NCBI RefSeq assembly: GCF_900187135.1
Contig: NZ_LT906443.1
Coordinates: forward strand, 2,356,001 to 2,420,000
DNA from: Corynebacterium ulcerans
GTDB taxonomy: Bacteria; Actinomycetota; Actinomycetes; Mycobacteriales; Mycobacteriaceae
Reading direction: 5' to 3'
DNA length: 64,000 nucleotides
The notes under the pieces were generated by a model. It saw nothing but the letters and a program-made list of their open reading frames with translations, was not told where the DNA came from and did no database searches. Below are positions 1 through 64,000 of the stretch, in pieces (the first letter of the stretch is position 1; each line of letters opens with the position of its first letter). A program made the translations under genes and the position numbers.

Positions 1-1
1 C

Positions 2-1060
2 AACGGGATTCGGATAACAGCTAACGAGGCAGTGGCTTCGGACTCTAGTCCTTATGAGGCTGCTATTCGGAAAAAGCAAGCACAGCATTCCGCACCATTG
101 CGTGTCGACGAATACGCTTCTTATTACTCCTCGCAACGGGGGAGGTTCAGCGAAATTAACGTCCTCCCTCCTAGTAAGAAGGTGGCAGATTCAGACTCTA
201 GGTTGTCGCTATTGGATTCCTTTAGCTTCTTTAACAATTGGGATAAAGAAATTTCTGTTTATGTGGTGACGCCATCAGTTATAAGCATGCTGGCCGACAG
301 CGAGCTGAAAACTCTCGATAAAAAAGTAATCGACCGCTTAGAACAGACAATTGCTCACGGCGGGGCAGTGGCCTTTAATCCGGATCTCGTTGAATCAGGA
401 AAAATCAATGTGGCCGTTAAAAGGAAAACGACTGACAAAGACGGCGACCATCACGAACTTCTTGCGATGGCTGTGCCAGGCGCCCATACTAACGCCGTGG
501 TCGTCTCTCCAGAGACCGCGCGATCTTTGGGCGTAGAAGCAGTATTCCGGGCTTCTTACTTAGTGGGTGGTTCGGAGCTTAGTTGGTGGGAGAAACTAAA
601 GCCAGGCTATTCCGGAGATGACTTTGCCAATGTCACGGTAACGAGGCTGTCGGCGTTACAAGATCGGTTTGAAGTGGCAGTAGTTTTGTTCCTGTCGTGG
701 GTGCTGTGCTTTGGCCTCATCCTTCTCCTAGTGGCGTTGGCCAGCTTTGAGACTCGTCGTGAAGTCACCACAATGTTCTCCCTAGGAGGGGAGAAGAAGC
801 TGATTCGACGATTCAGTGCGATGCAAGGACTATTCGTAGCCTTGACCGGCGCAGTAGGAACTATGGTTTGGCTGTTCGCGTTAGAGCGTGCAGAGCTGAT
901 CCGCTTACCTGTCGAAGATCATCCGTTCAGAGTGTTTGATATCCCTTGGATGATGGTTGCTGTCTATGCAGTAGGCGTGGTTTTTGTAGGGTGGCTAACG
1001 GGATATGCTTACGGGATAAAGCGGGGTCGTGATTATGATTCTTTAGTCCCTAGGAGATAG
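2..1060 (+). CDS. FtsX-like ABC transporter permease, C-terminal part
   Basis: The frame is open to the left edge, so only the C-terminal 350 or so residues are present; the GTG at 32 is probably internal. The first two thirds is a soluble, extracytoplasmic-looking region. Three hydrophobic segments follow, at about residues 214-238, 265-287 and 304-326 counted from the GTG, separated by a charged loop with FSLGGEKKLIRRF. This layout matches the last three membrane helices of MacB/FtsX-family permeases, in which a large periplasmic-type domain precedes the final helices. Such proteins work with a separate ATPase, which would lie to the left. Family assignment rests on topology and the loop sequence; the substrate is unknown. 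The gene ends in a terminator shared with the opposing operon. Confidence 0.65.
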   Translation, partial: NGIRITANEAVASDSSPYEAAIRKKQAQHSAPLRVDEYASYYSSQRGRFSEINVLPPSKKVADSDSRLSLLDSFSFFNNWDKEISVYVVTPSVISMLADSELKTLDKKVIDRLEQTIAHGGAVAFNPDLVESGKINVAVKRKTTDKDGDHHELLAMAVPGAHTNAVVVSPETARSLGVEAVFRASYLVGGSELSWWEKLKPGYSGDDFANVTVTRLSALQDRFEVAVVLFLSWVLCFGLILLLVALASFETRREVTTMFSLGGEKKLIRRFSAMQGLFVALTGAVGTMVWLFALERAELIRLPVEDHPFRVFDIPWMMVAVYAVGVVFVGWLTGYAYGIKRGRDYDSLVPRR

Positions 1061-1064
1061 AGAA

Positions 1065-1104
1065 AAAGCGAGGTCCTCACCAGTTCTGGTGAGGACCTCG
1101 CTTT
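1065..1104. terminator. Bidirectional rho-independent terminator
   Basis: A perfect 17-bp inverted repeat (arms 1065-1081 and 1088-1104) with a 6-base loop carries A and T runs at its outer ends. It lies between converging genes and can serve the permease gene on the plus strand and the protease operon on the minus strand. Confidence 0.9.
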
Positions 1105-1135
1105 ATGTGTGAGCTACAAACTAACCCGAGGAGTT

Positions 1136-1876
1136 TTAGTGGCTGTGGAAGGGGAGCGGGAAACTTGGAAGCGGAATGACGGTGGGGAAAGCGGTGGCGT
1201 CGATAAGCGGGCTAGGAGCGTCGGCGGCGGGCGGTTTGGACGCTCCGCTTATGGCTGAAATCCACTCGGTGTGCTCCGCAACAGGCGTGTACCAGCCGAC
1301 CGTACCTGTGTGACTGGTCATGCTGAGAACGCCGACCACAGCGTTGCCTTCCATCAACGGGCCTCCGGAATCGCCTTGGCGGAGGATTCCTTGGCTGATC
1401 CATTGCTCAATTAAGACGGCCTGGCGGTCGGGGCCGGGGACGTTGGTGACACGGCGCTGTGTTGTAGCCTCCGCCCACTGCGCGTGGCCGTGGGTGATCC
1501 CGCCCCAGCCTGCAGCGATGGTTTTTTCACCAAAAGACAGGTTGTTGCTGGAAAGCGTCATCGGCGCTGTGCCAGATGGTCGATCAAGCTTGATTAACGC
1601 GATATCTGCGGTGGGGTGGGGAATTTGTTCGACAGCGCGGAAGACTTGGCCGCCGACGCCGATAGTTGATGGTCCGGCGCCAAGGCAATGCCGAGCGCTC
1701 AATACCCATTCAGGAGTTACAAGAGCGCCTGTGCATTGCTGCTCTCCTAGTCCCACATAAGCGAGACTGGGTTGATTGGTTGCAGTGCCGCCGACGACTG
1801 CGTGACTAGGAGCAACTATTCCTAGCGAGAGAGCGACGGCGGTGGTGACAGCAGATAATCGGCGAAAAAGCCGCAT
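1136..1876 (-). CDS. Secreted trypsin-like serine protease
   Basis: A 246-residue chymotrypsin-fold (S1) protease. An N-terminal signal peptide (residues 1-26, ending PSHA) is followed directly by VVGG, the equivalent of the mature trypsin N-terminus. The triad is visible: His63 in SARHC, Asp91 in TADIALIKL and Ser170 in GDSGGPL; Cys48 and Cys64 are placed to form the usual disulfide beside the catalytic His. A proline-rich tail of about 35 residues follows the domain. The lack of an obvious pro-segment suggests that signal peptidase cleavage itself yields the active N-terminus, which is inference. It is the last gene of a four-gene minus-strand operon; its ATG touches the stop codon of the ArsC-like gene (TAA then ATG), so translation is probably coupled. 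The substrate is unknown. Confidence 0.88.
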   Translation of the reverse strand: MRLFRRLSAVTTAVALSLGIVAPSHAVVGGTATNQPSLAYVGLGEQQCTGALVTPEWVLSARHCLGAGPSTIGVGGQVFRAVEQIPHPTADIALIKLDRPSGTAPMTLSSNNLSFGEKTIAAGWGGITHGHAQWAEATTQRRVTNVPGPDRQAVLIEQWISQGILRQGDSGGPLMEGNAVVGVLSMTSHTGTVGWYTPVAEHTEWISAISGASKPPAADAPSPLIDATAFPTVIPLPSFPLPFHSH

Positions 1877-2221
1877 TTAGAGAATCTCCTCTATTACTTC
1901 CGTGGGACGTGCAAGGCGTACGCCTTTATCCGTGGATACGATCGGCCGTTGAATAAGCCGGGGGTGTTTTACCATCGTAGCAATGAGATCGTCGTCGGAA
2001 GTTTCTGGCGAGAGGCCTAGGTCTTGGTAGAGCTGCTCGTTTGTTCGTATTGCCTCGTGGGGGCTTAGCCCTGCTGTGCGTAGGAGGTCGCGAAGAGTGT
2101 CCTCGCTAGGAGGGGAAGAGAGGTAATTAATGACCTGCACATCATCATGCCCTCGATCCTGCACGAACTCCAGCGCCGCGCGCGACTTAGAGCAGTGTGA
2201 ATTGTGATAGATGGTGATCAT
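1877..2221 (-). CDS. ArsC/Spx-family protein (arsenate reductase-like)
   Basis: A 114-residue thioredoxin-fold protein of the ArsC/YffB group. The N-terminus MITIYHNSHCSKSR carries the single active-site Cys in the HCSKSR loop, and the C-terminal half has the RLIQRPIV segment typical of glutaredoxin-coupled ArsC, whose Arg helps bind arsenate or thiol substrate. The start at 2221 is chosen because it forms an ATGA overlap with the upstream stop and the domain begins there; a longer reading from 2254 would add an atypical N-terminus. It sits in an operon with a DUF402 protein and two exported proteins and has no arsenic genes nearby, so a general thiol-redox role is as likely as arsenate reduction. 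Confidence 0.85.
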   Translation of the reverse strand: MITIYHNSHCSKSRAALEFVQDRGHDDVQVINYLSSPPSEDTLRDLLRTAGLSPHEAIRTNEQLYQDLGLSPETSDDDLIATMVKHPRLIQRPIVSTDKGVRLARPTEVIEEIL

Positions 2222-2751
2222 GGTGCGGGCTCCAGTTTGACGGTGTCGGCCCATTCTAGGTCGTAGCCTAGGGAGGAGAGCCAGCTCATGGGATCGTCGT
2301 TGTAGCGGGTTATTCCTTCGACGGCGAGGAGGGTCGCGTCAATTGCACGTTCGGCTTCTTCTGCGGTGATGATGCCCGCTGAGGTTGCTGCTGCGAGCTC
2401 ATCGATGTCTACCACTTTGACGGGTTCCCCGGTTACGGAGATGAGGTCCACATACAAGTCGCGAGTGACCCACATGTTGTCTTCTCGGGAAATATCGGCG
2501 ACATCAAAGTAGAAATCCTGACGTTCGTCGACACCTTCACGGAAATGGAAGATATTGGCTCGCAATCCCAAGCTAGGCAGGAGCCATGACTCTAGGTAGC
2601 CGAATTTGGGATGGTCAGCACCACGGGCCATGTACAGGCCAAAATCGGTGGAGTGAAAGTCGTCTACGCGCCGCTGAAAACCTTTGGGGTCGATATTGGT
2701 CATCGACGATGGATCGAAGGTTTCCTTTTTCACTGGATGCAGGTCAACCAT
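2218..2751 (-). CDS. DUF402-domain protein
   Basis: A 177-residue soluble protein. The middle holds the DUF402 core: a beta-rich stretch ending in RDLYVDLI, then an acidic VVDIDEL, resembling the conserved acidic clusters of this family, which in characterised relatives bind a divalent metal and act on phosphorylated nucleotides or ribonucleotide conjugates. The C-terminal helix region (about 120-160) is also usual for the family. The gene overlaps its neighbours at both ends (TAATG at 2749-2753 and ATGA at 2218-2221), so it is co-translated with the secreted protein upstream and the ArsC-like protein downstream. The exact reaction is unknown. Confidence 0.75.
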   Translation of the reverse strand: MVDLHPVKKETFDPSSMTNIDPKGFQRRVDDFHSTDFGLYMARGADHPKFGYLESWLLPSLGLRANIFHFREGVDERQDFYFDVADISREDNMWVTRDLYVDLISVTGEPVKVVDIDELAAATSAGIITAEEAERAIDATLLAVEGITRYNDDPMSWLSSLGYDLEWADTVKLEPAP

Positions 2752-3461
2752 TATTTCACCTCGAAGAGTGCAGCCGTGGGTAGGAAAGTGCAGGGGCTTG
2801 CCTCTGTGGCAATAGTTCCCTCGATGAGTGCAATGACGCGTCCCTTCCCCGTATCAGCGGTTCCGGATACGGTGCTAGGGCCATCTGGGTTGATTCCGTG
2901 GCCGACGAGTCGAGTACTTCCGCCCTGCAACGTGGAAAGATTAAACCAGTGAACATTCATTGCTTGATGCTCATTGGGGGCGAGTTTTCCAGTTCCTAGC
3001 GCGGTGAAAACAAAGGCGGTTTCGCCTTCTTTTGCTCCTGGTGCTGGAATTTCTGCAGGTCCGGGAACGGCGATTGCTGACCCTGTGGCAGTCAGTTGCC
3101 CGCTGATGCAGCGTCCCGCGATGCTGGGCCAGAGGAACTGGTTGAACTGGGGACCATTGTCGGGGACTTTAATTTCCCCCTGCCCGGTCCCTTCTATGAA
3201 GGCCACGGCTGCGAGCAGTTGGTTGCGGATTGGTTCAGGCAGGGTGTTGGCAAAGTCTTTCGCTTTGCTGAGGGTTTCGGCATTCGGGCGTCCGAGTTGG
3301 TCCAGGGGGAGCCAGGAGGAGAGGTCAACCGTCGACGAGGACGACAAAAGCGGCGCTGCCGGCAGAGGTTGTGCAGGCATAGCGGTTGCACCACCGATTG
3401 AGGTGAGAGTGCAAGTAGCCGCGAGAAGCGTCGCGGTGATGGCGTGGGTAATTCGGCGCAC
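2751..3461 (-). CDS. Secreted protein of unknown function
   Basis: A 236-residue protein with a clear signal peptide: charged MRRITH, a hydrophobic core to about residue 24 and an Ala-rich cleavage region around residue 28. The mature part opens with a Pro/Ser/Ala-rich linker and then carries a predicted beta-rich domain with two cysteines (near residues 117 and 223) that could form a disulfide. I do not recognise a named family; similar exported proteins occur in mycolic-acid actinobacteria. It is the first gene of the operon ending in the trypsin-like protease, so the promoter for all four genes should lie in 3462-3832. Its co-transcription with a protease raises the possibility that it is a substrate or inhibitor, but nothing in the sequence proves this. 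Confidence 0.7.
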   Translation of the reverse strand: MRRITHAITATLLAATCTLTSIGGATAMPAQPLPAAPLLSSSSTVDLSSWLPLDQLGRPNAETLSKAKDFANTLPEPIRNQLLAAVAFIEGTGQGEIKVPDNGPQFNQFLWPSIAGRCISGQLTATGSAIAVPGPAEIPAPGAKEGETAFVFTALGTGKLAPNEHQAMNVHWFNLSTLQGGSTRLVGHGINPDGPSTVSGTADTGKGRVIALIEGTIATEASPCTFLPTAALFEVK

Positions 3462-3832
3462 GTACAGCCTTCCTAGCTATTGGATTTGCTATTGCCGTAT
3501 AGAGAGACGTGTTTATTGGGCGAGGGAAGCCAATAAATACAATAGCAAGTCACAATAATCACAAGAGTTTACTCGAATAACAGTAGTCACTGCTTTAATA
3601 GTGTCAAGGGTTACTAACTAATATTCTCAATGTGGGGGAACGGAAAAATTCCTCTCTTGATACACGTCGCTCATCGTGATCTTTTTGTTACATGTTGCTG
3701 TATCTACGTTTCTAACGTGCACAGTTGTGGGTAAGTGGAGTAATGTAACAGCGCTGTACTATGCGCCCGGACTCTTCGCATGATTCGGCGACGTGATTTT
3801 ACCAGGCGCATCCAATTTTTCAGGAGACACTT
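3462..3832. other. Divergent intergenic region between the secreted-protein operon and typA
   Basis: About 370 bases without a credible ORF, A+T-richer than its surroundings. It must hold the promoters of two divergent units. I could not place -35/-10 boxes with confidence. The only clear element is the ribosome binding site AGGAG at 3822-3826, which fixes the TTG start of typA. No riboswitch-like or strong hairpin structure was seen. Confidence 0.6.
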
Positions 3833-5743: not shown

Positions 5744-5753
5744 GATAGCTCGC

Positions 5754-8194: not shown

Positions 8195-8198
8195 AAGA

Positions 8199-8600: not shown

Positions 8601-8648
8601 CATAATGAATCGAATCATCCGAATACGTGAAGTGGAGATCTATAAGCA

Positions 8649-8966: not shown

Positions 8967-8988
8967 AAACATCTTCAAAGGACGGACC

Positions 8989-10259: not shown

Positions 10260-10295
10260 CAACAAGGTTAATTGCCCACTAGGAGGAGAGACTCG

Positions 10296-10854: not shown

Positions 10855-12027
10855 CTAGACAGCTACCCCAAAATGCTGGCAGGCCCAATAGCGGCCAGAT
10901 TTTCTGGCAAGAGGCAGGATGCTGGCACGCGGTCGTGCAGTGGGGGATGGGGGTTGTAAGCCGGCTCGGCCGGTATGGGGCATGCGGATATAGTGTCCGT
11001 TGGTGGGTAGGAGAGGGTTGTCGTCGTTAAGCTTATTGTGCGTTGAGCAGCAAGCGACGAGGTTTTTGAGGTTTGTTTCTCCGCCGAATTGCCACGCTTG
11101 GAGGTGGTGAATTTCGCAGTTGTTAGCGAGCCTGTGGCAGCGTGGGTCGGCGCAGGTGAGTTGATCTGCGGTGAGGATGAGGCGCTGCTTTTTGTTGGCG
11201 TAGCGTTTGGTGCGGAAAAGGTCGACAGGCTCAGGGACGCCGTCCTGATTAAGTGCGTAGATGACGGCGTAGCCGAGATCCGCTAGGAGATGCTCTGCAA
11301 GGTCTTTAGCGGGAATGAGGGCGCCGTCCGTGGTGGCTAGCATGCCGTCGCCAATGTGTGTGAGACCATCAGCGGGTAGGAGGATGAGGCCTTCACGACG
11401 CGGAATGTTTGCAGCATCATGCTGCAATATGCTCTGTTTCAGCGCCAGCGCCAAGGCATGCGAATATGTGAGTGTGGGGTTATGGCGTCGTAAGTGCCGT
11501 GCCAGCGAGTTAAGTTTTTCGCTGATGGCGCTGGCATCGTCGTCGTGAAGCGAAGCATGCACATGGCGCATCCCATCTGCATCAGTGTTGCGCGATATGC
11601 GAGCAGCCGGCGTCTGCTGTGGTTTCCCGCATTCGCTATTGAGCGCGACGACTTGCGCCGCTGCCTCCGCTTTCGCTTCAAGCACAGTCTTGCCCCGAGC
11701 CCACCGATACAACCGCTTGCGGAGGGCCTCCCTGCTTATCGACGCCTCCCCGGACAGCTTGCTCAACGCAGCATTGGTAACTCGCAGGATCTCTATGCCC
11801 AAGTGATTGGCCTCAGCTATAGCAATAGCTTCCTGACGCTGTTTCGATGCCCTTTTCGCCCCAAACAAATCGCGGCCCAACTTCAGCACCGACCCTAGCC
11901 ACTGAGGATGGAAACCAAACTGTGCTGCGATATCTTCCTTGGACGTCGTCGCGCTCAGCTCAAATAGAAACTTGGCAATTTGAATGCCGCTGGTGGAATA
12001 GACGGAGAAAGCCCCTTCGATGTTCAT
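10855..12027 (-). CDS. DUF222 / HNH endonuclease-domain protein
   Basis: A 390-residue protein with an N-terminal helical DUF222 region (about 30-250) and a C-terminal HNH nuclease motif: CADPRCHRLANNCEIHHLQAW, then GGETNLKNLVACCSTHNK. The cysteines around the motif can hold structural zinc and the HH pair supplies the catalytic His. This architecture is typical of the multi-copy 13E12-like families of actinobacteria. The biological role is unknown; no restriction or transposition partner is nearby. A hairpin surrounds its start codon (12007-12059). Confidence 0.85.
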   Translation of the reverse strand: MNIEGAFSVYSTSGIQIAKFLFELSATTSKEDIAAQFGFHPQWLGSVLKLGRDLFGAKRASKQRQEAIAIAEANHLGIEILRVTNAALSKLSGEASISREALRKRLYRWARGKTVLEAKAEAAAQVVALNSECGKPQQTPAARISRNTDADGMRHVHASLHDDDASAISEKLNSLARHLRRHNPTLTYSHALALALKQSILQHDAANIPRREGLILLPADGLTHIGDGMLATTDGALIPAKDLAEHLLADLGYAVIYALNQDGVPEPVDLFRTKRYANKKQRLILTADQLTCADPRCHRLANNCEIHHLQAWQFGGETNLKNLVACCSTHNKLNDDNPLLPTNGHYIRMPHTGRAGLQPPSPTARPRASILPLARKSGRYWACQHFGVAV

Positions 12028-12104: not shown

Positions 12105-13514
12105 TTAATTGGTCCCGATACCTGTGGAATTCTCGCCAGGCAGTTGCGCTTTTTCAAAAGGTCGTCTAACAGCAACCAAGCTCACTAGGAAAAGTACTGC
12201 GACCATCGTTAGCGCAGACAACAACTCAATCCGCGCATGTGCGTCGCTGAGCATAAGTGCTCCGAGGCCGGCAAGGATGATGAGGGTGAAGCTCGTTAAC
12301 CACGGGTAGGCCCACATCCTCACTCCTAGGGACGGAACCAAAGCCTCAAGCCTACGACGCAGCTTCAACTGGGAAACCGCAACGAACGTCCAAACCGTAA
12401 GCAACGATGCACCCGCAGCATTGAGTAGGAAAGAGAGCAACCAACCGGTATCGAGGTAGTTGAGCACCACCATGACAACACTGAGAATCACCGATAAAAG
12501 GATCGCGGTAGTCGGCACGCCACGTTTGTTCACCCGTGCAAACATCCGAGGCGCTTGTCGACGCTCCGCCAAAGACATCATCATCCTAGAGCTGGCATAA
12601 ATCTGAGCGTTGAACGCAGACAACAAAGCTAAAACAATGACAACTTCCATCGTCCCTACGACACCAGGGATGCCGGCGATCGCTAAAACCTGAGAAAACG
12701 GACTCTCAGCGGCGCTCTGAGCCTTTCCTAGCGATGAGTAGGGTAGGAGGAGGACGATCACGGCGACGGATCCAAGATAGAAAATACTGATGCGAGTAAT
12801 CGTGGTTCGTACGGCGTTGACCAAAGATCGTTGCGGATCTTCAGATTCAGCGGATGCAATAGCCACGACTTCGATGCCGCCAAAACCGAAAGCAACCGCT
12901 AGGAGAGCCGCAGCGATGCCACTGACGCCATTGGGCATAAACCCTTCGTTTTCGATCTGATTGAGTCCTACAAAGTCATGGCCGGGTAAAAGACCCGTGA
13001 CTAGGAGGAAGCCGACGGCCAAGAAAAGAACCAAGACTGCAACTTTGATAAAAGCGAACCAGAACTCGAATTCACCGAAGGCTCGTACGCGTAGGAGATT
13101 AATGGTGCCAAATACCAAAACAAAGAAAAGTGCTGGTAGCCAAGGTGACACTCCTAGCCACGATGCAACAAATCCCGCAGCACCGGTTATTTCTGCGCCT
13201 AGGACAGCGACGGTGGCGAGCCAATAAACCCACCCTTGGATAAAACCTGCCCAGTGGCCAATTCCAGCGTCTGCATATTCAGAAAAAGAGCCGGAAGCTG
13301 GTACCACGGATCCCATCTCGCCGAGCATGCGCATAATCATGACAGCGATAAATCCTGCGATGATATAAGCGACAATCACAGCGGGGCCCGCGGCTTTAAT
13401 ACCAACGCCTGTCCCTAGGAAGAGGCCGGCGCCGATTGTTGATCCAAGTCCCATCATTGTGAGATGTCGGACTTTCAGTCCACTTCCTAGTCGCGTGATG
13501 TTTTCGCTTGTCAT
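12105..13514 (-). CDS. Amino acid permease (APC family), copy 1
   Basis: A 469-residue transporter with about 12 hydrophobic segments. The N-terminal signature [15 protein letters not shown] is the unwound helix-1 substrate site of APC-superfamily permeases such as AroP and GabP, and SESEDP-type loop sequence (ASAESEDPQRS) is also typical. The ATG at 13514 is preferred; a TTG 24 bases upstream is possible. It is paralogous to the permease at 14595-15959 along its whole length, and each follows a dapD-type gene on the minus strand. The substrate is likely an amino acid, perhaps aromatic or basic, but cannot be fixed from the sequence. Confidence 0.88.
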   Translation of the reverse strand: MTSENITRLGSGLKVRHLTMMGLGSTIGAGLFLGTGVGIKAAGPAVIVAYIIAGFIAVMIMRMLGEMGSVVPASGSFSEYADAGIGHWAGFIQGWVYWLATVAVLGAEITGAAGFVASWLGVSPWLPALFFVLVFGTINLLRVRAFGEFEFWFAFIKVAVLVLFLAVGFLLVTGLLPGHDFVGLNQIENEGFMPNGVSGIAAALLAVAFGFGGIEVVAIASAESEDPQRSLVNAVRTTITRISIFYLGSVAVIVLLLPYSSLGKAQSAAESPFSQVLAIAGIPGVVGTMEVVIVLALLSAFNAQIYASSRMMMSLAERRQAPRMFARVNKRGVPTTAILLSVILSVVMVVLNYLDTGWLLSFLLNAAGASLLTVWTFVAVSQLKLRRRLEALVPSLGVRMWAYPWLTSFTLIILAGLGALMLSDAHARIELLSALTMVAVLFLVSLVAVRRPFEKAQLPGENSTGIGTN

Positions 13515-13609
13515 GACGGGGGGGTCTTTCCGAGGCAAGAGGGGAGAAGAATAGCGACGCCGCCGTTCTTTTCCCCTGCTAGATAGTCGTTAGGTGTGAT
13601 GCGGGAGGG

Positions 13610-14584
13610 TTAGTTTGAGTGCAAGTCAGTGTTGAGCTCGACTGCCTCAGTTTTCCACGCGGTCGCTTCAATAGCACCGCTGATGGAGTTGCGGCGGAAC
13701 AAAACGTTGTTTGCGCCTGCGAGTAGGAGGGCTTTGGTGCTGGCGCCGTCGTCAAGCTTCATCGCTTCAGCGACAGCACCGCGGACGATGACTTTGGAGC
13801 CTGCAGTGACGTAAAGGCCTGCTTCGATGACGCAGTCGTTGCCGAGCGGAATGCCGCAGCCAGAGTTAGCGCCTAGGAGGCAGCGTTCGCCGAGTGAGAT
13901 AACGTGCTTCCCTCCACCAGAAAGCGTTCCCATGATGGATGCGCCGCCACCGACGTCCGAGCCGTCTCCTACTACGACGCCCGCAGAGATGCGGCCTTCC
14001 ACCATGGACGCGCCTAGGGTTCCGGCGTTGAAGTTAACGAATCCTTCATGCATAACGGTGGTTCCTTCGGCCAGATGAGCGCCGAGCCGGACTCGGTCAG
14101 CATCACCGATGCGAACGCCGCTAGGAAGGACGTAGTCGACCATGCGTGGGAATTTATCCACAAGATGGACAGTGACTGGGCCTCGGGCCTGGAGCTTCGC
14201 ACGGGTCATCTCGAAGTCGGCGATCTGGCATGGACCGTAGTTGGTCCACACAACGTTGGTGAGGAGCCCAAAAATCCCATCAAGGTTTTGCCCGTGTGGC
14301 TTCACTAGTCGATGCGAAAGCAAATGCAGGCGCAGGTATGCGTCGTAGGCGTCGGTAGGAGGGGAGGAGAGATCTGAGATTCCGGTGCGGATCGCTTCAC
14401 GACGCACACCTCGATCCGCATCCTCACCAACGAGATCACGGAACTCAGCGGGAATATCGTCGCCCTGGAGCGTGACTGTTGTGGTATCGGTGGGAGCGTC
14501 GAGACGCGGAGCCGGGAACCATGCGTCTAGCACGGTTCCATCGTTGGTGATTGTTGCAAGTCCAATAGCTAGTGCAGAAGTCAT
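13610..14584 (-). CDS. dapD: Tetrahydrodipicolinate N-succinyltransferase DapD
   Basis: A 324-residue trimeric left-handed beta-helix acyltransferase using succinyl-CoA; first step of the succinylase branch of DAP synthesis. The hexapeptide-repeat C-terminal half contains [14 protein letters not shown] and [16 protein letters not shown], strongly conserved in actinobacterial DapD, and ends with the usual FRRNS and LNTDLHSN segments. The start is ATG 14584 (MTSALAIG); an upstream in-frame ATG would overlap the preceding permease gene. The permease-2 gene ends 10 bases upstream, so the two are probably co-transcribed. A divergent second copy lies at 16044. Confidence 0.95.
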
Positions 14585-14594
14585 GTGTGGGAGT

Positions 14595-15959
14595 CTACTT
14601 ACTCTTTTTCCTAGTGAGGAATGACAGGATAACCAGGGTTGTAAAGACAACGGCTACGGAGGTGATTTGGCTGCGGGAAGAGTCGTCGGAAAGCATGAGC
14701 GCGGTGAGTCCGATAAAGCCGACAACAGTAAACCAGCCGAGCCATGGATAACACCACATGCGGACCGTAGTGATCTCTTTCTTTTCCACGAGCTCAGGGT
14801 GCAGCTTGATGTAGGACAACGAAATCATGACCCAGATGACGATAAGGCACCCTCCTACTGCGTTGAGTAGGAAGCTGAGGAGGCCTGCGGGGTTCCAGTA
14901 CTGAAGCCCAACGGATGCGAACGCAAAAAACATACTGAGTAGCACTGCCGCAATAGGAACACCCTCGCGATTTGTCGACGCAAACATCCTAGGGGCGTTT
15001 CCTCGTTGCGCCATGGAATGGACAAAACGAGAGGTTGCGTAGATCTGCGCATTAAAAGCGGAGAGCAGAGCAACAACGATGATGGCCTCCATGAAACCAA
15101 CCACACCTGGAATATTGGCCATTCCCAGAATGATAGTGAAAGGCGACTGTGCCGCGGTCTGCGCCCCGCCGATTTGGTTGTACGGGAGTAGGAAGCTGAT
15201 GACGAGCACCGAGCCTAGATAGAACGTAGAAATTCGCCAAATGACTGATCGTACTGCCGTGGCAATGGCGGTTTTGGGATCTTCCGATTCTGCTGCTGCG
15301 ATCGTGACGATTTCGGTACCGCCGAACGCGAAAGCCACGGCTAGGAGACCAGTGGCGACTCCTGTGATTCCGTTGGGCATGAATCCGTCGCCAAGGAAAT
15401 GCTGCGTTCCTACGTAGTCGTGTCCCGGTAGGAGGCCAAAGATAAGCAAAATGCCAACGACGAGGAAAATGATGATGACCGCAACTTTGATAAACGCGAA
15501 CCAAAACTCGAACTCGCCGAAGCCGCCAACTTTGGCAAAGTTAATCACTGCAAAAAATACAACGCACACTAGCGCTGGGATCCATGGGTCGATACCAAAC
15601 CATTGACCCATAATCGCTGCCGCGCCGGTCATTTCTGCGCCGAGGACCATGGTGAGCATGAACCAATAAAGCCAACCTAGGCTGAAACCTGCCCAGTGGC
15701 CGAATGCCTGTTCCGCGTAGATGGAAAAGGAACCGGAGGCAGGACGTGCTGCCGCAAGCTCTCCTAGCATCTGCATCACAAAAACGACGAAGATACCGGA
15801 GATGATATAAGCGATAAGGACAGCAGGGCCAGCAGCCGCAATTCCTACGCCCGTCCCTAGGAAGAGGCCGGCGCCGATCGCCGATCCTAGTCCCATCATC
15901 GTGAGGTGCCGGGTCTTAAGTCCGCTTCCGAGCCCGGTCTCGGAGGTTGCTTCAGTCAT
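14595..15959 (-). CDS. Amino acid permease (APC family), copy 2
   Basis: A 454-residue APC-superfamily permease. It shares the N-terminus [15 protein letters not shown], the helix [15 protein letters not shown], the LLPGHDYVG loop, [11 protein letters not shown] and [11 protein letters not shown] with permease copy 1, showing that the two arose by duplication. It starts at ATG 15959 and is followed within 10 bases by dapD. Orientation and spacing suggest the order dapD2, permease 2, dapD, permease 1. The substrate is unknown; a role in lysine or another amino acid's transport is suggested only by its neighbours. Confidence 0.88.
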
Positions 15960-16043: not shown

Positions 16044-16958
16044 CTAGGAGAAGGAGTGGATTACAGGCTCCGGATGTCCGAACTCCATCTGGACACAAAA
16101 ATTGGATTTTCCGCGCAGTGATTCGGCTATGCATCTCTGTTGTGAGGAGGCATCGTAGATTTGTGTTGCCGGGTCGAGCACGATGTTGTTGCAGATGGTT
16201 ACGTTGTCGCCAAGGTCGATCCCGATGACAGCAGCGCCAAGTCCGAGCTTGCAGTTATTTCCTACCCGGAGGCGTTTAGTGCTTTTGTCAGGGACTAGGG
16301 AAGCAGAGATCCCGAGGTCGAGGTCGTTGCCTACGACAGTTCCAGCGTAAAGACGACCTTCGACACGTCCTGGTCCCAGAGTTCCGGCGTTATAGGAGAC
16401 GTAGCCTTCGCGTAGAACTTTGGTTCCCGGGGCGAGGTGCGCTCCTAGCCGCACGCGTTCGGCTTCAGTAATTTCTATGCCGCTAGGAACGACATAGTCA
16501 ACCATGCGAGGAAGCTTATCGATCCCATAGACATGGATGAGCCCACGGGAGCGCAAGGACGTGCGGACATTTTCGAAATCATCAGGCAAACAAGGGCCTT
16601 TGTTTGTCCATGCGACGATCGCTAGGAGATCGGTGGCGTTGTCCATGTTGATGTCATGAGGTCGCACGATGCGGTGGGAGAGCAGATGGAGCCGGAGGTA
16701 GACGTCGTGAGCGTCGATAGGAGGGGAGGAAAGATCCGCGATGGTCGTGTGCACGGCGATTTGTTCGACGCGGCGGTCTTCGTCGATACGCACGAGATTG
16801 AGGAGCTTGGGGGATATGTGGTGCGCCCCTAGGCGGGTGGTGCCTGTGGGGTGCATAGGGGAGCTGGTGAGTCTGGGGGCGGGGTACCAAGTGTCGAGGA
16901 CTGTTCCGTCCATTGCGATATTTGCTATCCCTGTGGCGTCGGCGCCGTGGTGAATCAT
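16044..16958 (-). CDS. dapD2: DapD paralogue with degenerate C-terminal domain
   Basis: A 304-residue homologue of DapD. The N-terminal half follows DapD closely ([58 protein letters not shown]). In the beta-helix it lacks the [14 protein letters not shown] block and has LGLGAAVIGIDLGDN where DapD has [15 protein letters not shown]; the C-terminal FRRNS...LHSN ending is missing. C. glutamicum also carries a second dapD-like gene. It may have lost succinyltransferase activity or changed substrate. ATG 16958 is chosen because it aligns with the DapD start; GTG 16979 is the alternative. It shares a region of about 80 bases with divergent dapE. Confidence 0.85.
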   Translation of the reverse strand: MIHHGADATGIANIAMDGTVLDTWYPAPRLTSSPMHPTGTTRLGAHHISPKLLNLVRIDEDRRVEQIAVHTTIADLSSPPIDAHDVYLRLHLLSHRIVRPHDINMDNATDLLAIVAWTNKGPCLPDDFENVRTSLRSRGLIHVYGIDKLPRMVDYVVPSGIEITEAERVRLGAHLAPGTKVLREGYVSYNAGTLGPGRVEGRLYAGTVVGNDLDLGISASLVPDKSTKRLRVGNNCKLGLGAAVIGIDLGDNVTICNNIVLDPATQIYDASSQQRCIAESLRGKSNFCVQMEFGHPEPVIHSFS

Positions 16959-17040
16959 GGTGAAAAGATTAGTAGCCACGTCAACGTTTCACTAACTTCA
17001 TTGAGTCGCCTTGCCACGGCGGGCTGTATTCTGTGTAGTC

Positions 17041-21086: not shown

Positions 21087-21953
21087 GTGCTTTCACATGT
21101 CATTGATGTTCTTGCCGATCCTACTGACGGAACACCACTGAGCTTGGTCGACGACTCCACAAGGCTCGTGTCTGAATCAGGACACAGCTTTGATGTCGCA
21201 CGTCAGGGCTATGTGACACTTGCAGGAGGCGCTGGTCTGCGTTACTCCGGCGATGATACGTCGATGATACGTGCCCGCGAAACCTTCCTATCCAGTGGGC
21301 ACTTTGCACCATTCGTAGAAGCAGTAAGCGCTGCGGTGCATACCGTTCTCGACGAGGCTGGCGTTGCCGACGACGCCCGCCCCACGATCTGCGAGATCGG
21401 CGCCGGAACGGGATACTATCTAGCGCACACGCTTGACGACGTCGACAACTCCGTCGGGCTCGGCATCGACGTATCCGTCCCCGCCGCCAAACTTCTAGCA
21501 AAATGTCATCCGCGCGTAGGAGCTGTAGTCGCCGACGCCTGGTCCCGCCTTCCTATCCAAGACGCCTCTATAGACGCCATCACCGTCATCTTTGCGCCCA
21601 GAAATGCTTCCGAGTTTGCCCGTGTGCTTAAACCAGGTGGCCAAGTCATCGTGCTCACCGCCGATACCGGCCACCTCGGCGAGCTGCGCGATCCTCTTGG
21701 CATCATTGATGTGGAACAAGGAAAAGTACAAAGGATGATCGATCAGGCCGCCGGGCATCTTACGCCAGTAGGAGAGCCAGAGCCTGTCCAATTCACTATG
21801 CGCTTAGACCAGGACTCTATAGCCACCCAAATTGGGATGAGCCCCTCGGCTCGCCACATCCACCCAGATGTTTTGGCTGAGAGGATCGCAACGCTGCCAC
21901 CAGTGATGGACGTGACGGCGAGGGCTATGATTACTCGTTTCACAAAGGTCTAA
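21087..21953 (+). CDS. RlmA/TlrB-like methyltransferase
   Basis: A 288-residue class I SAM-dependent methyltransferase. The SAM motif is EIGAGTGYYLAHTLD (about 109-123), followed by LGIDVS and VVADAWSRLPI; the N-terminal HSFDVARQGYVTL matches the start of the 23S rRNA (guanine-N1) methyltransferase group RlmA/TlrB. The zinc-binding cysteines that open RlmA are absent here (DPTDGTPL in their place), as in many actinobacterial relatives. rRNA methylation is therefore likely but unproved. It starts at GTG 21087 with AAGGAG upstream and ends in a strong terminator. Confidence 0.82.
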   Translation: MLSHVIDVLADPTDGTPLSLVDDSTRLVSESGHSFDVARQGYVTLAGGAGLRYSGDDTSMIRARETFLSSGHFAPFVEAVSAAVHTVLDEAGVADDARPTICEIGAGTGYYLAHTLDDVDNSVGLGIDVSVPAAKLLAKCHPRVGAVVADAWSRLPIQDASIDAITVIFAPRNASEFARVLKPGGQVIVLTADTGHLGELRDPLGIIDVEQGKVQRMIDQAAGHLTPVGEPEPVQFTMRLDQDSIATQIGMSPSARHIHPDVLAERIATLPPVMDVTARAMITRFTKV

Positions 21954-54192: not shown

Positions 54193-54216
54193 GATAGACG
54201 TTTAAGGTCTAGTACA

Positions 54217-54255: not shown

Positions 54256-54279
54256 GTCTTACATATCGGAGCTTCCGCT

Positions 54280-54699: not shown

Positions 54700-54729
54700 C
54701 TCTGCGCCTTCCTCAACTGCGTAAGGCGT

Positions 54730-55167: not shown

Positions 55168-55170
55168 AAG

Positions 55171-55218
55171 ATAAGAAGGCGGGTCTCACATGAGCTCATG
55201 TGAGACCCGCCTTCTTAT
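55171..55218. terminator. Bidirectional terminator, perfect 48-bp palindrome
   Basis: Arms 55171-55194 and 55195-55218 are exactly complementary, without a loop base in the primary sequence. It separates the VOC gene from the converging DUF2269-like gene. Confidence 0.88.
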
Positions 55219-55227
55219 GCGTTGTGT

Positions 55228-55698: not shown

Positions 55699-55738
55699 TG
55701 GAAGCCTTTCGCAAAAAAATTGGGTGAGAAATACCACA

Positions 55739-56326: not shown

Positions 56327-56360
56327 TCCTTTTAGACGGAACGCGGCGCTCGTTCGGTTC

Positions 56361-57920: not shown

Positions 57921-57961
57921 CACAACCTCCAAAAATTATTCTCTCAAACACTACCTGACCG

Positions 57962-57991
57962 TTACGGAATATCTTCACAAGCTGGTAAGAC
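57962..57991 (+). promoter_or_regulatory. Candidate leaderless promoter of the SNF2 helicase gene
   Basis: TTACGG (57962-57967), 18 bases, TAAGAC (57986-57991); transcription would start at or next to the ATG at 57999. No ribosome binding site precedes that ATG. Confidence 0.4.
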
Positions 57992-57998
57992 TAAGTAG

Positions 57999-60900: not shown

Positions 60901-61094
60901 GGATCGGGCAGCGCAAAGACGTCACCGTTTATAAAATGATTACCGCAGGCACGTTGGAAGAATCGATTCAGGATATTCTCGATGGCAAAACTGAACTGGC
61001 CTCCGCCGTTGTCGGCGAGGGGGAAGGCTGGCTAACAGAACTTTCTCCTGAAGAACTCGCCATGCTCATGAGTTATAGAGGAAGGGACACCTAA
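57999..61094 (+). CDS. SNF2/HepA-type DEAD/DEAH helicase
   Basis: A 1031-residue superfamily 2 ATPase. A long N-terminal region (about 1-540) resembles the bacterial SNF2 N-domain; the motor has DDMGLGKTLQLL (Walker A, about 577-588), LDEAQQIKN (motif II as DEAQ), LTGTPVENR, and in the second lobe FTQYRVFGE, GGTGLNLT and DRAFRIGQ. It is followed within 2 bases by a SWIM zinc-finger gene, a pairing common in actinobacteria. It may remodel nucleoprotein or assist repair or transcription recycling; the role is not established. Confidence 0.92.
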   Translation: MTTHLLHGLWLKASGLHLWIEQVEGHKIVTADSVPEGTFPPQIMGILAGKRFNHRVRTTLLTPKGREVTLPLPTVAFTPEQAVSVLATIAAVTPMTATVDQRSSIAPDLVWLVRMYEGLTQFVRAGRVTIKMSFADHQWWPMWQLSSGLSERGWIAQMTAAAPGVLVANGGTAVAEDIADELPHWIAHSLLQGLAAEPRPTEWHNFSSALLHSTALRKGTAQLVSALNSWKDSIASVNLQIVFLVEEPPKEDDSVMDPIDILWPVRVQVRSGVDSPQPIVVSKFDRATVERLQALLREAIVVTPLLDPTREHTNSLQRYVLQRADNAGDWDCYLSTDELVEFIGSAVSTLKSRGFAVMLPRAWSQQETKAHIAIGDPAESSTQAKIGLDKIVDYNWRISVGNVELSDEEMNELVRSKSGLIRLRGEWVMADTAAVKRISEYMSELAAQSRKRKRAELDHAMMVAQLAKANDQPGWQQLEAHAETLAERFNNEFADFGQVTLAELREIAIKAAEKEPVEFQGSTWHTALVGGLVSQDIPAPQRIELPDTVHATLREYQRRGVDWLAWMSSNGLGAVLADDMGLGKTLQLLSLEAAERAEQSEGQRGPTLVVAPTSVVGNWAREAHKFVPSLRVLVHHGSSRLRDAAFLEKAQASDIVVTSYGTIARDHQLLSHIQWERVALDEAQQIKNSATKVSKAVRAMPSKHRIALTGTPVENRLSEMRSILDFCNPGVLGSASFFRNHFARAIEREQDEAMTERLRALTAPFVLRRLKTDPSIVDDLPEKTEIILTVDMKPEQAALYRAYVEDIQKQIDQAEGISKRGLVLSALTKIKQICNHPAHFLGDDSDVTVKGKHRSGKVEELMRLVSDAVESEQKLLIFTQYRVFGEILAPYLSDYFGTQIPFLHGGVSKIGRDRMVENFQSPEGPPAMILSLKAGGTGLNLTAASIVVHMDRWWNPAVENQATDRAFRIGQRKDVTVYKMITAGTLEESIQDILDGKTELASAVVGEGEGWLTELSPEELAMLMSYRGRDT

Positions 61095-61095
61095 C

Positions 61096-61881
61096 ATGCC
61101 TCAGCGTCCTTCCAAAGATAACGTCATCTATGCAAACTTCGGGGCAAAGAAGCGAGTATCTTCTCCCGAGGAGCTACCGGATTTGCGGGAAACCACGCAA
61201 TTTAACGCTGTGGCACGCAAAGTACGCGATCTTGTGCACCACCATACAGACCAAGGGCGTCTGAAAAGAGGGCGCGATTACGCTAGAAATAACAGTGTTC
61301 TTAACTTGAAACTCGATGGCTCGGCGATTTCTGCTGATGTGGTCGGGTCTCAGAATGAGCCATTTCGCGTGACTATTTCTCTGCCGTATCGCGATACAGA
61401 TGATTTAGCTGCTGTTACTGCCGAGCTGGCTGAATTACCTAACGGAATTAAGCGGGCAAAAGAGGGAAAACTCAGCGAGGATGTGGCCGAGATCTTGATC
61501 GGGTCACATGCACAGTTTTGGTGTGATTGCCCCGACCATGTGGTGTGTTGCAAACATGCTGTGGCAGTGGCCTACGCTGCGGCGGATCGGCTGGAAACAG
61601 AACCGCTGTTAGCTTTTGAAATGCGCGGTTTGGACTTACTCAAATTAGAGCAGTCGCTCACGATGCAAGCGCGTTCCATCAGCGAACGCGACGTGAAAAG
61701 CCATTTTTGGGACGGAAAAACCTTGCCAGACCTTCCTACTCCTAAAAAGGCACCAGCTTTAGAGGACTCGGACGAATCTTTGTTGCGCAAAGCCATGCGT
61801 TTAGTGTCTTTGACCTCTATTGACGAGCTCAAGGCCGTCGCGGATATCGAAGACCTGTACTATCATCTCACCCGCGAGTAG
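61096..61881 (+). CDS. SWIM zinc-finger protein
   Basis: A 261-residue protein with one SWIM motif, CxC...CxH: Cys143, Cys145, Cys152 and His154 in WCDCPDHVVCCKHAV. The region before it (about 70-130) is beta-rich and the tail is helical and charged. Its start is one base after the SNF2 stop, so the two are co-translated and very likely form a complex. Confidence 0.88.
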   Translation: MPQRPSKDNVIYANFGAKKRVSSPEELPDLRETTQFNAVARKVRDLVHHHTDQGRLKRGRDYARNNSVLNLKLDGSAISADVVGSQNEPFRVTISLPYRDTDDLAAVTAELAELPNGIKRAKEGKLSEDVAEILIGSHAQFWCDCPDHVVCCKHAVAVAYAAADRLETEPLLAFEMRGLDLLKLEQSLTMQARSISERDVKSHFWDGKTLPDLPTPKKAPALEDSDESLLRKAMRLVSLTSIDELKAVADIEDLYYHLTRE

Positions 61882-61929
61882 GGGTGGCTGGGTGTCTTTG
61901 GTGTTGAAGGAGCATGGTAGACAAAGTTC

Positions 61930-63048
61930 ATGACCGTCACCTTTTTGCACACCTCAGATCTTCAGATCGGAATGATCAGGTGGTTCCTTGATTCCGATGC
62001 TCAGGCGCGTTTCGACGATGCCCGCATCAACGCCATCACTCGTCTAGGGGCCATTGCGGAGGAGATGAACTGCGAGTTCATTGTGATGTCAGGGGATGTT
62101 TTCGAACACAATTCTTTGGAGAAGAAAACATCAGGTAGGGCCTTGGAAGCATTAAAGAAACTTCCGGTGCCCGTATATCTTTTATCGGGAAATCACGATC
62201 CACTTGTCGCAGATTCCTTGTTTTATCAGGCGGAAAATATGGAAAACGTCCATGTTTTATCTGACTCCAGCCCTGTTGAGGTTCGCAGAGGCGTTGAGAT
62301 TGTGGGCGCACCGCTGACAACCAAGCGTGCTACATATGACGTTCTGGGCGGTGCGTTAGGAGCGCTGACACCTACTGATGCCATTCGAATCGCAGTCGGA
62401 CACGGACAAACTGAAGCGAGAACGAATGACATCGTTCCCGATTTAATAAACCTAGATTTAGCGGAAAGTAAACTTGCTGATGCGTCCGTGGACTATATTG
62501 CGCTGGGTGATACGCACTCAACCCAAGCAGTAGGGGAGACCGGTCGAATGTGGTACTCGGGAGCTCCAGAAACCACTGATTTTTATGAAGTAGCAACTGG
62601 TGGCGGTGAAACTGATTCTGGAAATGTATTAGTGGTAACGGCAGGCAAAGGTACCGCCGAGGTTGCAAAAATTCCCTGTGGAGCGTGGATTTTTGAGGCG
62701 CTTACTGTATCTATCAACTCCCAAGAAGAAGCGGAAGCTTTCATCTCAACGCTTGAGACATATCCAGACAAGTCCACGACCGTCATCAAATATGCGCTGC
62801 AGGGCACTGTTTCACTGGCCACAATGAAGTATCTTGAACAGGAGATAGCACGGCTCCAACCCATCTTTGCAGCGTTATATGAGAGGCCTAGGCTCATGGA
62901 TTTTCATGTCGAGCCATCCGATGAAGAACTCTCTGATTTAGGCCTTTATGGTTTTGCCAAAACTACGTTAGAAGAACTCGCAGCAGCGGATAACCAGACT
63001 GCTCGCGATGCGGTCAATCTGTTATTCCGGCTGAGCAAGGAGCAATAA
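61930..63048 (+). CDS. SbcD/Mre11-like phosphoesterase with altered metal ligands
   Basis: A 372-residue metallophosphoesterase of the DNA-repair exonuclease group. Motifs: HTSDLQIG (residues 7-14), SGDVFEHN, SGNHDPL, VGHGQTE and ALGDTHSTQ. Compared with Mre11/SbcD the DxH motif reads D10-L-Q12 and the GHxH motif reads GDTH, so two metal-ligand His are replaced by Gln and Asp. Either the enzyme holds one metal differently or belongs to a divergent clade. The Rad50-like gene follows 6 bases after the stop. Confidence 0.85.
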   Translation: MTVTFLHTSDLQIGMIRWFLDSDAQARFDDARINAITRLGAIAEEMNCEFIVMSGDVFEHNSLEKKTSGRALEALKKLPVPVYLLSGNHDPLVADSLFYQAENMENVHVLSDSSPVEVRRGVEIVGAPLTTKRATYDVLGGALGALTPTDAIRIAVGHGQTEARTNDIVPDLINLDLAESKLADASVDYIALGDTHSTQAVGETGRMWYSGAPETTDFYEVATGGGETDSGNVLVVTAGKGTAEVAKIPCGAWIFEALTVSINSQEEAEAFISTLETYPDKSTTVIKYALQGTVSLATMKYLEQEIARLQPIFAALYERPRLMDFHVEPSDEELSDLGLYGFAKTTLEELAAADNQTARDAVNLLFRLSKEQ

Positions 63049-63054
63049 TTCACG

Positions 63055-64000
63055 ATGCGTATTCATAACATACAAATCCAGGATATGCGTTCCATTGATC
63101 ATTTGGAATTGCGTGATCTCCCGGAAAAAGGCGTTATCGTGATCGCTGGTGATAATGAGTTGGGCAAGTCCACCATTATGGAGGCGATCTCGATAACTCT
63201 GGGGGAGCAGTACTCTACGGGTAAAAAGAACATTCGTGACATTAAACCTGTGGATAAGGATGTCCCTACTAAAACTTCTTTGACTGCCACCATCGGTCCA
63301 TACACTTTTACAATTTCTAAGACATGGAATAACTCTCGGGCCGCTGAACTTGTGATTCATGCTCCCATTCCTGGAAACTATGCAGGTAGGGAGGCTGAAA
63401 ATAAGCTTTCTGCGATTCTTGATGAGCATCTAGACGTCCATTTACGTGATGTTTTGTTCATGGAACAAGGAAAGTATGACGTTACATTTGCTGCTGCAGG
63501 CATTCCTTCACTAAGCGCTGCACTAGGAACTGGGGAGTCAATTAACAAAGCTGAAGATAATGAACTGATTTCTGCTGTTGAAAAGGAATTCAAACGCTAT
63601 TATTCGGGACAGAAAATAAAGAAAAATGGTGAGTTAGATAAAGCTCTCAATGAGCTGGATAAAGCACAGGGTGCCCTTGACGAGGTTACTCGTAGAAGCA
63701 TTGAGCTCGAAGGACGAGTTAGCCGTATTAGTGCCATCACTCAGCGGAAAGCTATAGCGGAGGAGCAGCTTCCTCACGCGAAAAAAGAATGTGCAGAAGC
63801 ACAAGAAAAGTGGGAAGCGGTACAAAAGCGCATACAAGAGGTTGCATTGGTGCAATCAGAAGTTGATCGCTTACTTGAACAGGTTGAATATAGTGAGCGT
63901 TTACTTCTTCAGCGGAAAGAGAAGACGGAGCACCAAGCAACTGAAGAAGCTGAGTTGGCTGCGTCGAAGCAAAGTTTAGTGGAGGAACAAGCCAAGGCTG
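63055..64000 (+). CDS. SbcC/Rad50-like SMC ATPase, N-terminal part
   Basis: Runs off the right edge; about 315 residues are visible. MRIHNIQIQDMRSIDHLEL is the usual start of SbcC/RecF-type ATPases, GDNELGKST the Walker A, and FMEQGKYD the Q-loop region. From about residue 190 the sequence becomes a heptad-like coiled coil. Signature and Walker B motifs would lie beyond the window. ATG 63055 is 6 bases after the SbcD-like stop. Confidence 0.9.
   Translation, partial: MRIHNIQIQDMRSIDHLELRDLPEKGVIVIAGDNELGKSTIMEAISITLGEQYSTGKKNIRDIKPVDKDVPTKTSLTATIGPYTFTISKTWNNSRAAELVIHAPIPGNYAGREAENKLSAILDEHLDVHLRDVLFMEQGKYDVTFAAAGIPSLSAALGTGESINKAEDNELISAVEKEFKRYYSGQKIKKNGELDKALNELDKAQGALDEVTRRSIELEGRVSRISAITQRKAIAEEQLPHAKKECAEAQEKWEAVQKRIQEVALVQSEVDRLLEQVEYSERLLLQRKEKTEHQATEEAELAASKQSLVEEQAKA

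What the first reader, a model, noticed from the sequence alone, without database searches (positions are those of the whole stretch)
1..64000. STAGGAR 7-mer is strongly over-represented and declines across the window
Seen directly: (C/G)TAGGA(A/G) and its reverse occur about 190 times by hand count, against about 31 expected with equal base frequencies. Per 10 kb the counts are about 44, 56, 33, 25, 15 and then about 14. Both orientations are common, several codon phases are used (Leu-Leu, Leu-Pro-Ser, Leu-Gly, Pro-Ser-Tyr), and copies occur in non-coding DNA, so a protein-level cause is unlikely. It contains CTAG, a tetramer avoided in many bacteria. It is rare in typA, odhA and the DEAD-box helicase gene. 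It could be a chromosome-architecture signal, a binding site for an abundant nucleoid protein, an uptake-like tag, or a mutational product. A strict FtsK-type polar signal fits badly, because orientation follows no constant strand.
Basis: partly seen in the sequence, partly recalled or inferred. Interest (0 to 1): 0.75.

Follow-up and report, generated by a model that had tools for sequence, protein, structure and literature searches.

The report
Nuclease gene ringed by its motif
The short DNA word spotted in this window is not spread over the whole genome: it forms a dense, strongly conserved cloud around one gene for a presumed DNA-cutting enzyme, and most of the related enzymes tested in other corynebacteria sit inside clouds of their own, often different, words, which points to an undescribed kind of gene that keeps a territory around itself.

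Summary
In detail: 193 STAGGAR sites in 64 kb. The reading as a genome-wide signal is not: whole-genome density is ordinary (1504 sites in 2.45 Mb, mirror control 1583). The window holds most of a two-sided peak (0.4/kb far away, about 6/kb at the centre). The exponential fit centres it 0.8 kb from the midpoint of an HNH-endonuclease gene, window 10855-12027, minus strand. Of 21 HNH loci of the genus that could be scored, 13 exceed all 59 pseudo-centres and 18 their 95th percentile. Orthologues share a word; clear paralogues in one genome differ. Where the gene occupies different places in two species, the cloud goes with the gene. Sites are conserved far above control, most near the gene. Two models show a ParB/Noc-like DNA-binding domain in front of the HNH domain. 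Best reading: the motif is the nuclease's own binding site, kept in cis so that the enzyme holds its neighbourhood. How that pays (recombination bias, decoy or structure) is inferred.

The parts
10855..12027 (-). HNH endonuclease gene (390 aa, P0001) at the centre of the motif cloud
   Evidence: exponential fit of STAGGAR density is centred 820 bp from its midpoint; C292, C297, H307, H308, N322, C327, H330 invariant in 17 homologues and the block conserved in all 25 HNH proteins aligned; weak NCBIfam hit to the IscB HNH region; Pfam HNH PF01844 in 14 of 17 members of A1, not in P0001 itself
11635..12015 (-). predicted ParB/Noc-like DNA-binding domain of the HNH protein (residues about 5-131)
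11020..11154 (-). HNH catalytic / zinc block of the protein (residues 292-336)
1..64000 (.). motif cloud: 193 copies of STAGGAR (core of about TSVSTAGGARRGGG), both strands, coding and non-coding; densest about window 6-20 kb; the left half of the cloud lies outside the window

Best explanation
The motif is the binding (half-)site of the HNH endonuclease encoded at window 10855-12027, and the cloud is a cis-acting territory of that gene. Step 1 (shown): a STAGGAR cloud is centred on the gene, and most homologous HNH genes tested in the genus are centred in clouds of their own words. Step 2 (strongly supported): the HNH protein reads the motif, because motif and protein change together across ortholog groups and the cloud goes with the gene; its N-terminal ParB/Noc-like domain is the likely reader. 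Step 3 (shown as excess conservation): sites are kept by selection or biased conversion, most strongly near the gene. Step 4 (inferred, about 0.45): bound to many sites around its own gene, the nuclease acts on recombination intermediates or incoming DNA in that neighbourhood, by nicking or cutting, so that exchanges keep or spread the haplotype with the gene; a site is worth keeping in proportion to how often an event there would also decide the fate of the gene, which gives the decay with distance. The stated confidence is for steps 1-3 together; the first two rivals below are rivals of step 4 only.
For: Centre: free-centre fits put the motif peak within 2.6 kb of the HNH midpoint at 11 of 11 loci fitted, in wide clouds (decay 9-25 kb; 8 loci) and narrow ones (about 2 kb; 3 loci); the weakest gain over a flat model is 5.0 log units, at the G000 793-kb copy with the pattern RYGGGGA. 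Calibration: 13 of 21 scored HNH loci exceed the maximum of 59 pseudo-centres, 18 of 21 the 95th percentile. Ortholog groups share words across species and clear paralogues in one genome differ: TAGGARRGGG, AAGTTAGGAGGG, CGTGGGGAA, CTAGATATAT, TGAAGGG, CCGGGAGTG, TCTGCACA. Cloud follows gene: the 57%-identical CGTGGGGA-type HNH genes of G039 and G000 are not syntenic; within 10 kb G039 has 21 CGTGGGGA sites, the syntenic HNH-free place in G000 has 2, and G000's own copy elsewhere has 33. At the dap locus STAGGAR within 10 kb of the centre is 101, 102, 97, 78 in four genomes with the gene and 1, 2, 8, 2, 5, 3 in six comparison genomes. Within 10 kb the HNH gene is the only family shared by more than 3 of 8 ortholog groups. 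Selection: STAGGAR kept in 94/101, 76/86, 53/69 cases with distance in G149 against 0.64, 0.62, 0.62 for permuted patterns; 84/101, 49/67, 51/80 in G139 against 0.49, 0.45, 0.39; second cloud 48/50 and 45/51 against 0.60 and 0.38. ParB/Noc-like domain in two models; recognition helices vary with words, imperfectly; several clouds contain inverted repeats: AAGTTAGGA arms at one fixed distance 9 times against 0.01 expected in each of two species. Synonymous G+C near the gene is higher than further out in 15 of 17 cloud loci, mean +0.03, a weak hint of local recombination.
Confidence: 0.85

Rival explanations
1. Decoy or antidote cloud. The nuclease is harmful; nearby binding sites trap newly made protein before it reaches the rest of the chromosome, and losing the locus (gene plus sites) frees it, so the cloud lowers toxicity or makes the locus addictive.
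For: Explains why the resident chromosome is rich in sites, why either orientation and coding or non-coding placement will do, why half-sites suffice, and a heavy-tailed distance law (power law with exponent 1.13 plus background, AIC 8841.7; two exponentials 8839.5; one exponential 8858.1), as might be expected for a protein made at one place.
Against: Does not need, though it allows, full conservation of the catalytic block in 25 of 25 proteins. Deleting the gene would be a simpler cure for the host. Does not predict the slightly raised local G+C.
Confidence: 0.28
2. Local chromosome structure. The protein works like Noc or ParB: it gathers or loops its surroundings through many sites and the HNH block is secondary.
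For: ParB/Noc-like domain and palindromic or half-palindromic sites around the gene; parS and NBS consensus (passages of PMC7383237) resemble two cloud words in layout; a heavy-tailed distance law resembles contact decay (recalled).
Against: HNH block conserved in 25 of 25; many unrelated positions on the chromosome, up to three cloud-bearing loci per genome examined; peak away from dnaA and putative dif.
Confidence: 0.15
3. Mutational product. Cutting or nicking near the gene followed by error-prone repair writes the motif into nearby DNA, without any selection for it.
For: Would give a gene-centred decay without fitness effects.
Against: Sites are far more conserved than permuted patterns, most near the gene; a hot spot predicts faster, not slower, turnover; motifs are 7-12 bp words or inverted repeats in varied contexts.
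Confidence: 0.05
4. Ordinary causes: codon usage, foreign DNA with another composition, polar segregation signals (FtsK/KOPS), uptake tags, or a signal of a neighbouring gene.
For: The region is slightly richer in G+C (about 0.54-0.57 against about 0.53), and GTCGAC is also enriched there.
Against: Codon nulls; dap loci of comparison genomes and a collinear HNH-free place lack the cloud; no orientation polarity; no genome-wide excess comparable to the peak; no other gene family shared by more than 3 of 8 ortholog groups.
Confidence: 0.02

Closest known systems
ParB/Noc family (ParB-parS, Noc-NBS, KorB, SopB)
   Same: Predicted DNA-binding domain fold; several clouds contain palindromic or inverted-repeat sites of similar layout (parS TGTTTCAC-GTGAAACA, NBS TATTTCCC-GGGAAATA, passages of PMC7383237; the CGTGGGGAA and CCGGGAGTG clouds are the nearest); sites lie around the protein's own gene, as parS often lies near parAB (recalled).
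   Different: No CTP-binding domain was found, an HNH block is attached, about 100 sites lie within 20 kb, the place on the chromosome varies, and there are several paralogues with different words in one genome.
Free-standing HNH homing endonucleases and intronless homing (T4 Seg/Mob; PMC2988022, passages seen)
   Same: Free-standing nuclease gene without intron; local action around its own gene with decay over distance would be the footprint of co-conversion.
   Different: In the T4/T2 case of those passages the cleaved sites lie in the other genome (that they are few is recalled); here the carrier's own neighbourhood is enriched many-fold in the motif, and whether the site is cut is unknown.
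DUF222 / 13E12-type HNH proteins of actinobacteria
   Same: Multi-copy HNH proteins; PF02720 matches 2 of 17 members of A1.
   Different: 15 of 17 members, including P0001, do not match DUF222 at E 0.01; no motif cloud is mentioned for that family in the listings and passages seen.
Genome-wide oligonucleotide signals (KOPS, Chi, matS, DNA uptake sequences; recalled)
   Same: Short over-represented words in coding and non-coding DNA.
   Different: Gene-centred, non-polar, local, with different words for different ortholog groups.

Membership tests
ParB/Noc family | ParB/Noc-type DNA-binding domain fold | tested here: met
ParB/Noc family | N-terminal CTP-binding (ParB/Srx) domain | tested here: not met
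   the DNA-binding domain starts at about residue 5; no ParB N-domain among Pfam matches of P0001 (E 0.001) or of the 17 members of A1 (E 0.01)
ParB/Noc family | palindromic cognate sites | tested here: inconclusive
   clear inverted repeats in the AAGTTAGGAGGG cloud, palindromes in the CTAGATATAT and CGTGGGGAA clouds; the window's own cloud is mostly half-sites, 4 inverted pairs at distance 15 against 0.26 expected
Free-standing HNH homing endonuclease | HNH catalytic block | tested here: met
Free-standing HNH homing endonuclease | cleavage site rare, and absent or protected in the genome that carries the gene | tested here: not met
   motif enriched around the gene in the carrier genome, if the motif is the cleavage site; protection by modification was not testable
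Free-standing HNH homing endonuclease | biased inheritance of the gene | not testable with these tools
   needs crosses or population data
DUF222 family | match to PF02720 | tested here: inconclusive
   2 of 17 homologues, not P0001
Restriction-modification or known defence system | partner methyltransferase or a PADLOC model | tested here: not met
   0 PADLOC families for P0001; no family besides HNH shared by more than 3 of 8 ortholog groups within 10 kb; none of the window proteins scanned was named a DNA methyltransferase
FtsK/KOPS-type polar signal | orientation polarity towards dif | tested here: not met
   both orientations on both sides; peak at about 2.367 Mb, putative dif at 0.205 Mb
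DNA uptake sequence | strong genome-wide over-representation | tested here: not met
   1504 STAGGAR against 1583 mirror pattern in the whole genome; weak excess over a codon null far away, 66 against 40.6 +- 6.6

The most novel reading that the evidence does not exclude
A new class of selfish gene, a territorial endonuclease: an HNH nuclease with a ParB/Noc-like domain that maintains around itself a decaying cloud of its own recognition word, which differs between ortholog groups, inside ordinary housekeeping genes, and uses it to bias local recombination (or to make its locus indispensable); several such territories with different words coexist in one chromosome and shape synonymous sites over tens of kilobases.
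Probability: 0.5. Interest if true: 0.95.

Novelty: categorically new. Interest (0 to 1): 0.88.

Why it matters
A gene that is followed by, and apparently maintains, a territory of its own recognition word across tens of kilobases of unrelated housekeeping genes is not among the systems I know of, and the rows shown by ten searches of the held open-access library list nothing of the kind (several lists were capped, and subscription papers and preprints are mostly not covered). It would mean that synonymous sites of essential genes are under selection imposed by a neighbouring nuclease, and it offers a ready-made test set: several paralogues with different words in one genome. It also gives a way to read DNA specificity of uncharacterised HNH proteins straight from genomes.

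Tried and rejected
Rejected: genome-wide signal; oriC or dif centring; polarity; codon usage; fixed spacing as the organising rule in the window's own cloud (21 gaps under 30 bp against 22.9 expected; a small excess of inverted pairs at 15 bp); single exponential law; simple mutational hot spot. The broken-HNH natural experiment in G149 was uninformative, because the cloud is still conserved. Aligned-column comparison of CGTGGGGA sites between G039 and G000 was uninformative, because only 2 of 21 sites lie in aligned columns. Divergence along the region shows no clear trend around the gene. Foldseek against PDB gave nothing at E <= 0.001; the solved-structure sequence search gave 4 marginal hits: one to ribosome-recycling factor (E 0.0059), taken as chance, and three to a Cas8f-HNH fusion over 29 positions of the HNH block (E 0.063-0.074).

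Failed or unused computing: searches (EM motif finder drifted for G039, G138 and G060; only the G000, G149, G139 and 793-kb matrices agree with the simple word counts; time limit; script error), redone. In the inner/outer test the contrast is small because wide clouds fill the tested stretch; searches use same-genome backgrounds instead. In one search, 5 of 25 HNH loci and 4 of 8 controls had no same-genome background, and words made of masked letters at one locus were dropped. In one search the background of G039_788k contained its own cloud through an overlapping region, so its score of 5.5 is too low, and some pseudo-centres lie in the tail of a wide cloud. In one search palindromic words were counted twice and no calibration was made. 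The gene caller used is home-made and missed the HNH gene at some loci (G060, G014, G090). Cloud labels were set by me.
Full report
What is there. The window holds 193 STAGGAR sites. It is 2,356,001-2,420,000 of a single-contig genome of 2,453,761 bp, of a Corynebacterium close to C. silvaticum: G149's contig of 341,059 bp has the length of NZ_SDQO02000004.1, C. silvaticum KL0182, its HNH protein is 97% identical and the aligned region 91.5% identical; the species name of the window itself is not known to me. Genome-wide the word is ordinary (1504 against 1583 for the mirrored pattern). With 160 kb fetched on the left and 34 kb on the right, STAGGAR forms a two-sided peak: 27 in the best 4 kb, and 0-9 per 4 kb more than 70 kb away. 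Ten control stretches of 20 kb hold 5-22 each, the 22 being the stretch nearest to the peak on the right. Including far stretches, density falls from about 6/kb to 0.4/kb with a heavy tail.

Centre. Four peak models put the centre at window 9.2-14.9 kb, that is within 3.5 kb of the midpoint of the HNH gene; a plateau model is worse (AIC 6195.6 against 6173.2 for the exponential). The exponential centre lies 820 bp from the midpoint of the gene at 10855-12027 on the minus strand, which encodes a 390-aa HNH protein.

Motif. In the core the word extends to about TSVSTAGGARRGGG. Sites occur in both orientations on both sides of the gene, in coding and non-coding DNA, and exceed two codon nulls many-fold.

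Other clouds. The HNH protein has relatives in 218 of 242 genomes of the genus searched. I examined 25 HNH-centred regions of 60-258 kb, chosen mainly from the best matches, not at random. STAGGAR is centred on the 97% and 91% identical orthologues, a near variant (TCTAGGAGGG) on the 55% identical one, and other words on more distant ones. With same-genome background the best word in the central 24 kb reaches -log10 p of 51 (G000 main), 32 (G000 copy at 793 kb, CGTGGGGA), 47 and 44 (G139), 38 and 16 (G039), 40, 17 and 12 (G138), 47, 13.5 and 15 (G060), 45 (G090_178k), 25 (G005_499k), 24 (G028_1463k), 9.3 (G014_1249k), 9.3 (G005_1300k), 7.3 (G014_1593k), 7.3 (G028_1236k) and 4.7 (G090_2001k), against 7.8, 4.8, 5.3 and 5.0 for four HNH-free controls; 5 of 25 HNH loci and 4 of 8 controls had no same-genome background. 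A calibrated version with the central 12 kb: 13 of 21 scored HNH loci above the maximum (11.9) of 59 pseudo-centres, 18 of 21 above their 95th percentile of 6.85; 4 further loci lacked background. At 2 of the 18 (G060_112k, G028_1236k) the top word is not one seen in an orthologue. One of the 4 unscored loci, G040_1872k, shows CTGACT 4, 6, 8 per 5 kb from -10 to +5 kb and 0-1 elsewhere. Orthologous pairs are not independent; at least seven different words are involved. In 25 of the 29 loci of named records (4 short or partial ones left out), two clear clouds (C. silvaticum, C. pelargi) and several weaker, uncalibrated candidates (HS2168, 122RC1, C. tapiri and others) were seen; loci of three high-GC genomes show nothing clear.

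The cloud follows the gene. The CGTGGGGA-type gene lies in non-syntenic places in G000 and G039 (57% identity, 0 flanking ORFs matched), while G039 728-853 kb is collinear with G000 2.220-2.353 Mb. The place in G000 that matches G039's gene position lacks it and has 2 CGTGGGGA within 10 kb; G039 has 21; G000's own copy elsewhere has 33. At the dap locus four genomes with the gene (about 5 kb from dapE) have 78-102 STAGGAR within 10 kb of the gene, six comparison genomes 1-8 within 10 kb of dapE. Of these six, G011 and G012 have no HNH match at all; for G060, G138 and G001 the listed copies lie elsewhere, but not every match was listed, and the single weak match of G018 was not listed. Within 10 kb the HNH gene is the only family present in more than 3 of 8 ortholog groups.

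Selection. Aligned to G149 (91.5% identity), STAGGAR sites are intact in 94/101, 76/86 and 53/69 cases at 0-10, 10-25 and 25-45 kb; 300 sampled permuted patterns, STAGGAR itself excluded, give 0.64, 0.62, 0.62. For G139 84/101, 49/67, 51/80 against 0.49, 0.45, 0.39. For G039 (72.8%) 25/86, 10/57, 8/30 against 0.13, 0.17, 0.15, so the middle bin shows no excess there. For the CGTGGGGA cloud, within 20 kb, 48/50 and 45/51 against 0.60 and 0.38. This is purifying selection or an equivalent biased process, and speaks against a mutational hot spot and against a neutral relic.

How it may work. The carrier is rich in sites, the opposite of the T4/T2 homing case, where the cleaved sites lie in the other genome (PMC2988022, passages). 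Therefore either the nuclease acts only on special DNA (incoming, single-stranded, mismatched, D-loops) near its tethering sites, or the sites are decoys, or the role is structural. Synonymous G+C is higher near the gene in 15 of 17 cloud loci (mean +0.030; 4 of 8 HNH loci without a cloud label, -0.010; 5 of 8 controls, +0.008; Mann-Whitney p 0.02, orthologues not independent), a weak hint of local recombination that is absent at the window's own locus. The heavy-tailed distance law fits a locally made protein or a mixture of tract lengths, not one tract length. I put about 0.45 on a role in local recombination, 0.28 on a decoy or antidote cloud and 0.15 on chromosome structure.

Literature. 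The rows shown by ten searches of the held library (several lists capped) include nothing on motif clouds around HNH genes. The DIVE paper mentions REP13E12/HNH/DUF222 only as repetitive elements (passages of PMC10589994). Subscription journals and preprints are mostly outside that library.

Noticed in passing
window 1-64000, and L115-L120 (G138): The palindrome GTCGAC is also enriched near the HNH gene (58 against 19.5 expected in the 40 kb core on a two-strand count; fitted peak 2.3 kb from the gene in G000, 1.2 kb in G138, but 7 kb in G149), beside the main motif; cause not found.
   Followed up: partly
G149:C1:209606-210740 (L223-L224): The C. silvaticum copy of the second HNH gene (CGTGGGGA type) is split and carries stops, while its motif cloud is still intact.
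   Followed up: partly
window 13610-14650 and 16044-16979: Two DapD-type genes (N-succinyltransferase) lie close together; the second scores below the family cut-off.
   Followed up: no
window 12105-13538 and 14595-15959: Two GABA-permease-like amino-acid transporter genes alternate with the two DapD-type genes, suggesting a duplicated pair.
   Followed up: no
window 21087-21953: rRNA methyltransferase-like gene similar to 23S G748 methyltransferases (Erm32, MyrA) but far below the cut-offs of those models; probably a housekeeping enzyme (inference).
   Followed up: no
G090:C1 about 179 kb (L175-L177) and G005:C1 about 500 kb (L172-L174): Clouds of CCGGGAGTG are much narrower (decay about 2 kb) than those of the window's group (9-25 kb), and the motif occurs 6 and 5 times within 600 bp of the HNH midpoint.
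   Followed up: partly
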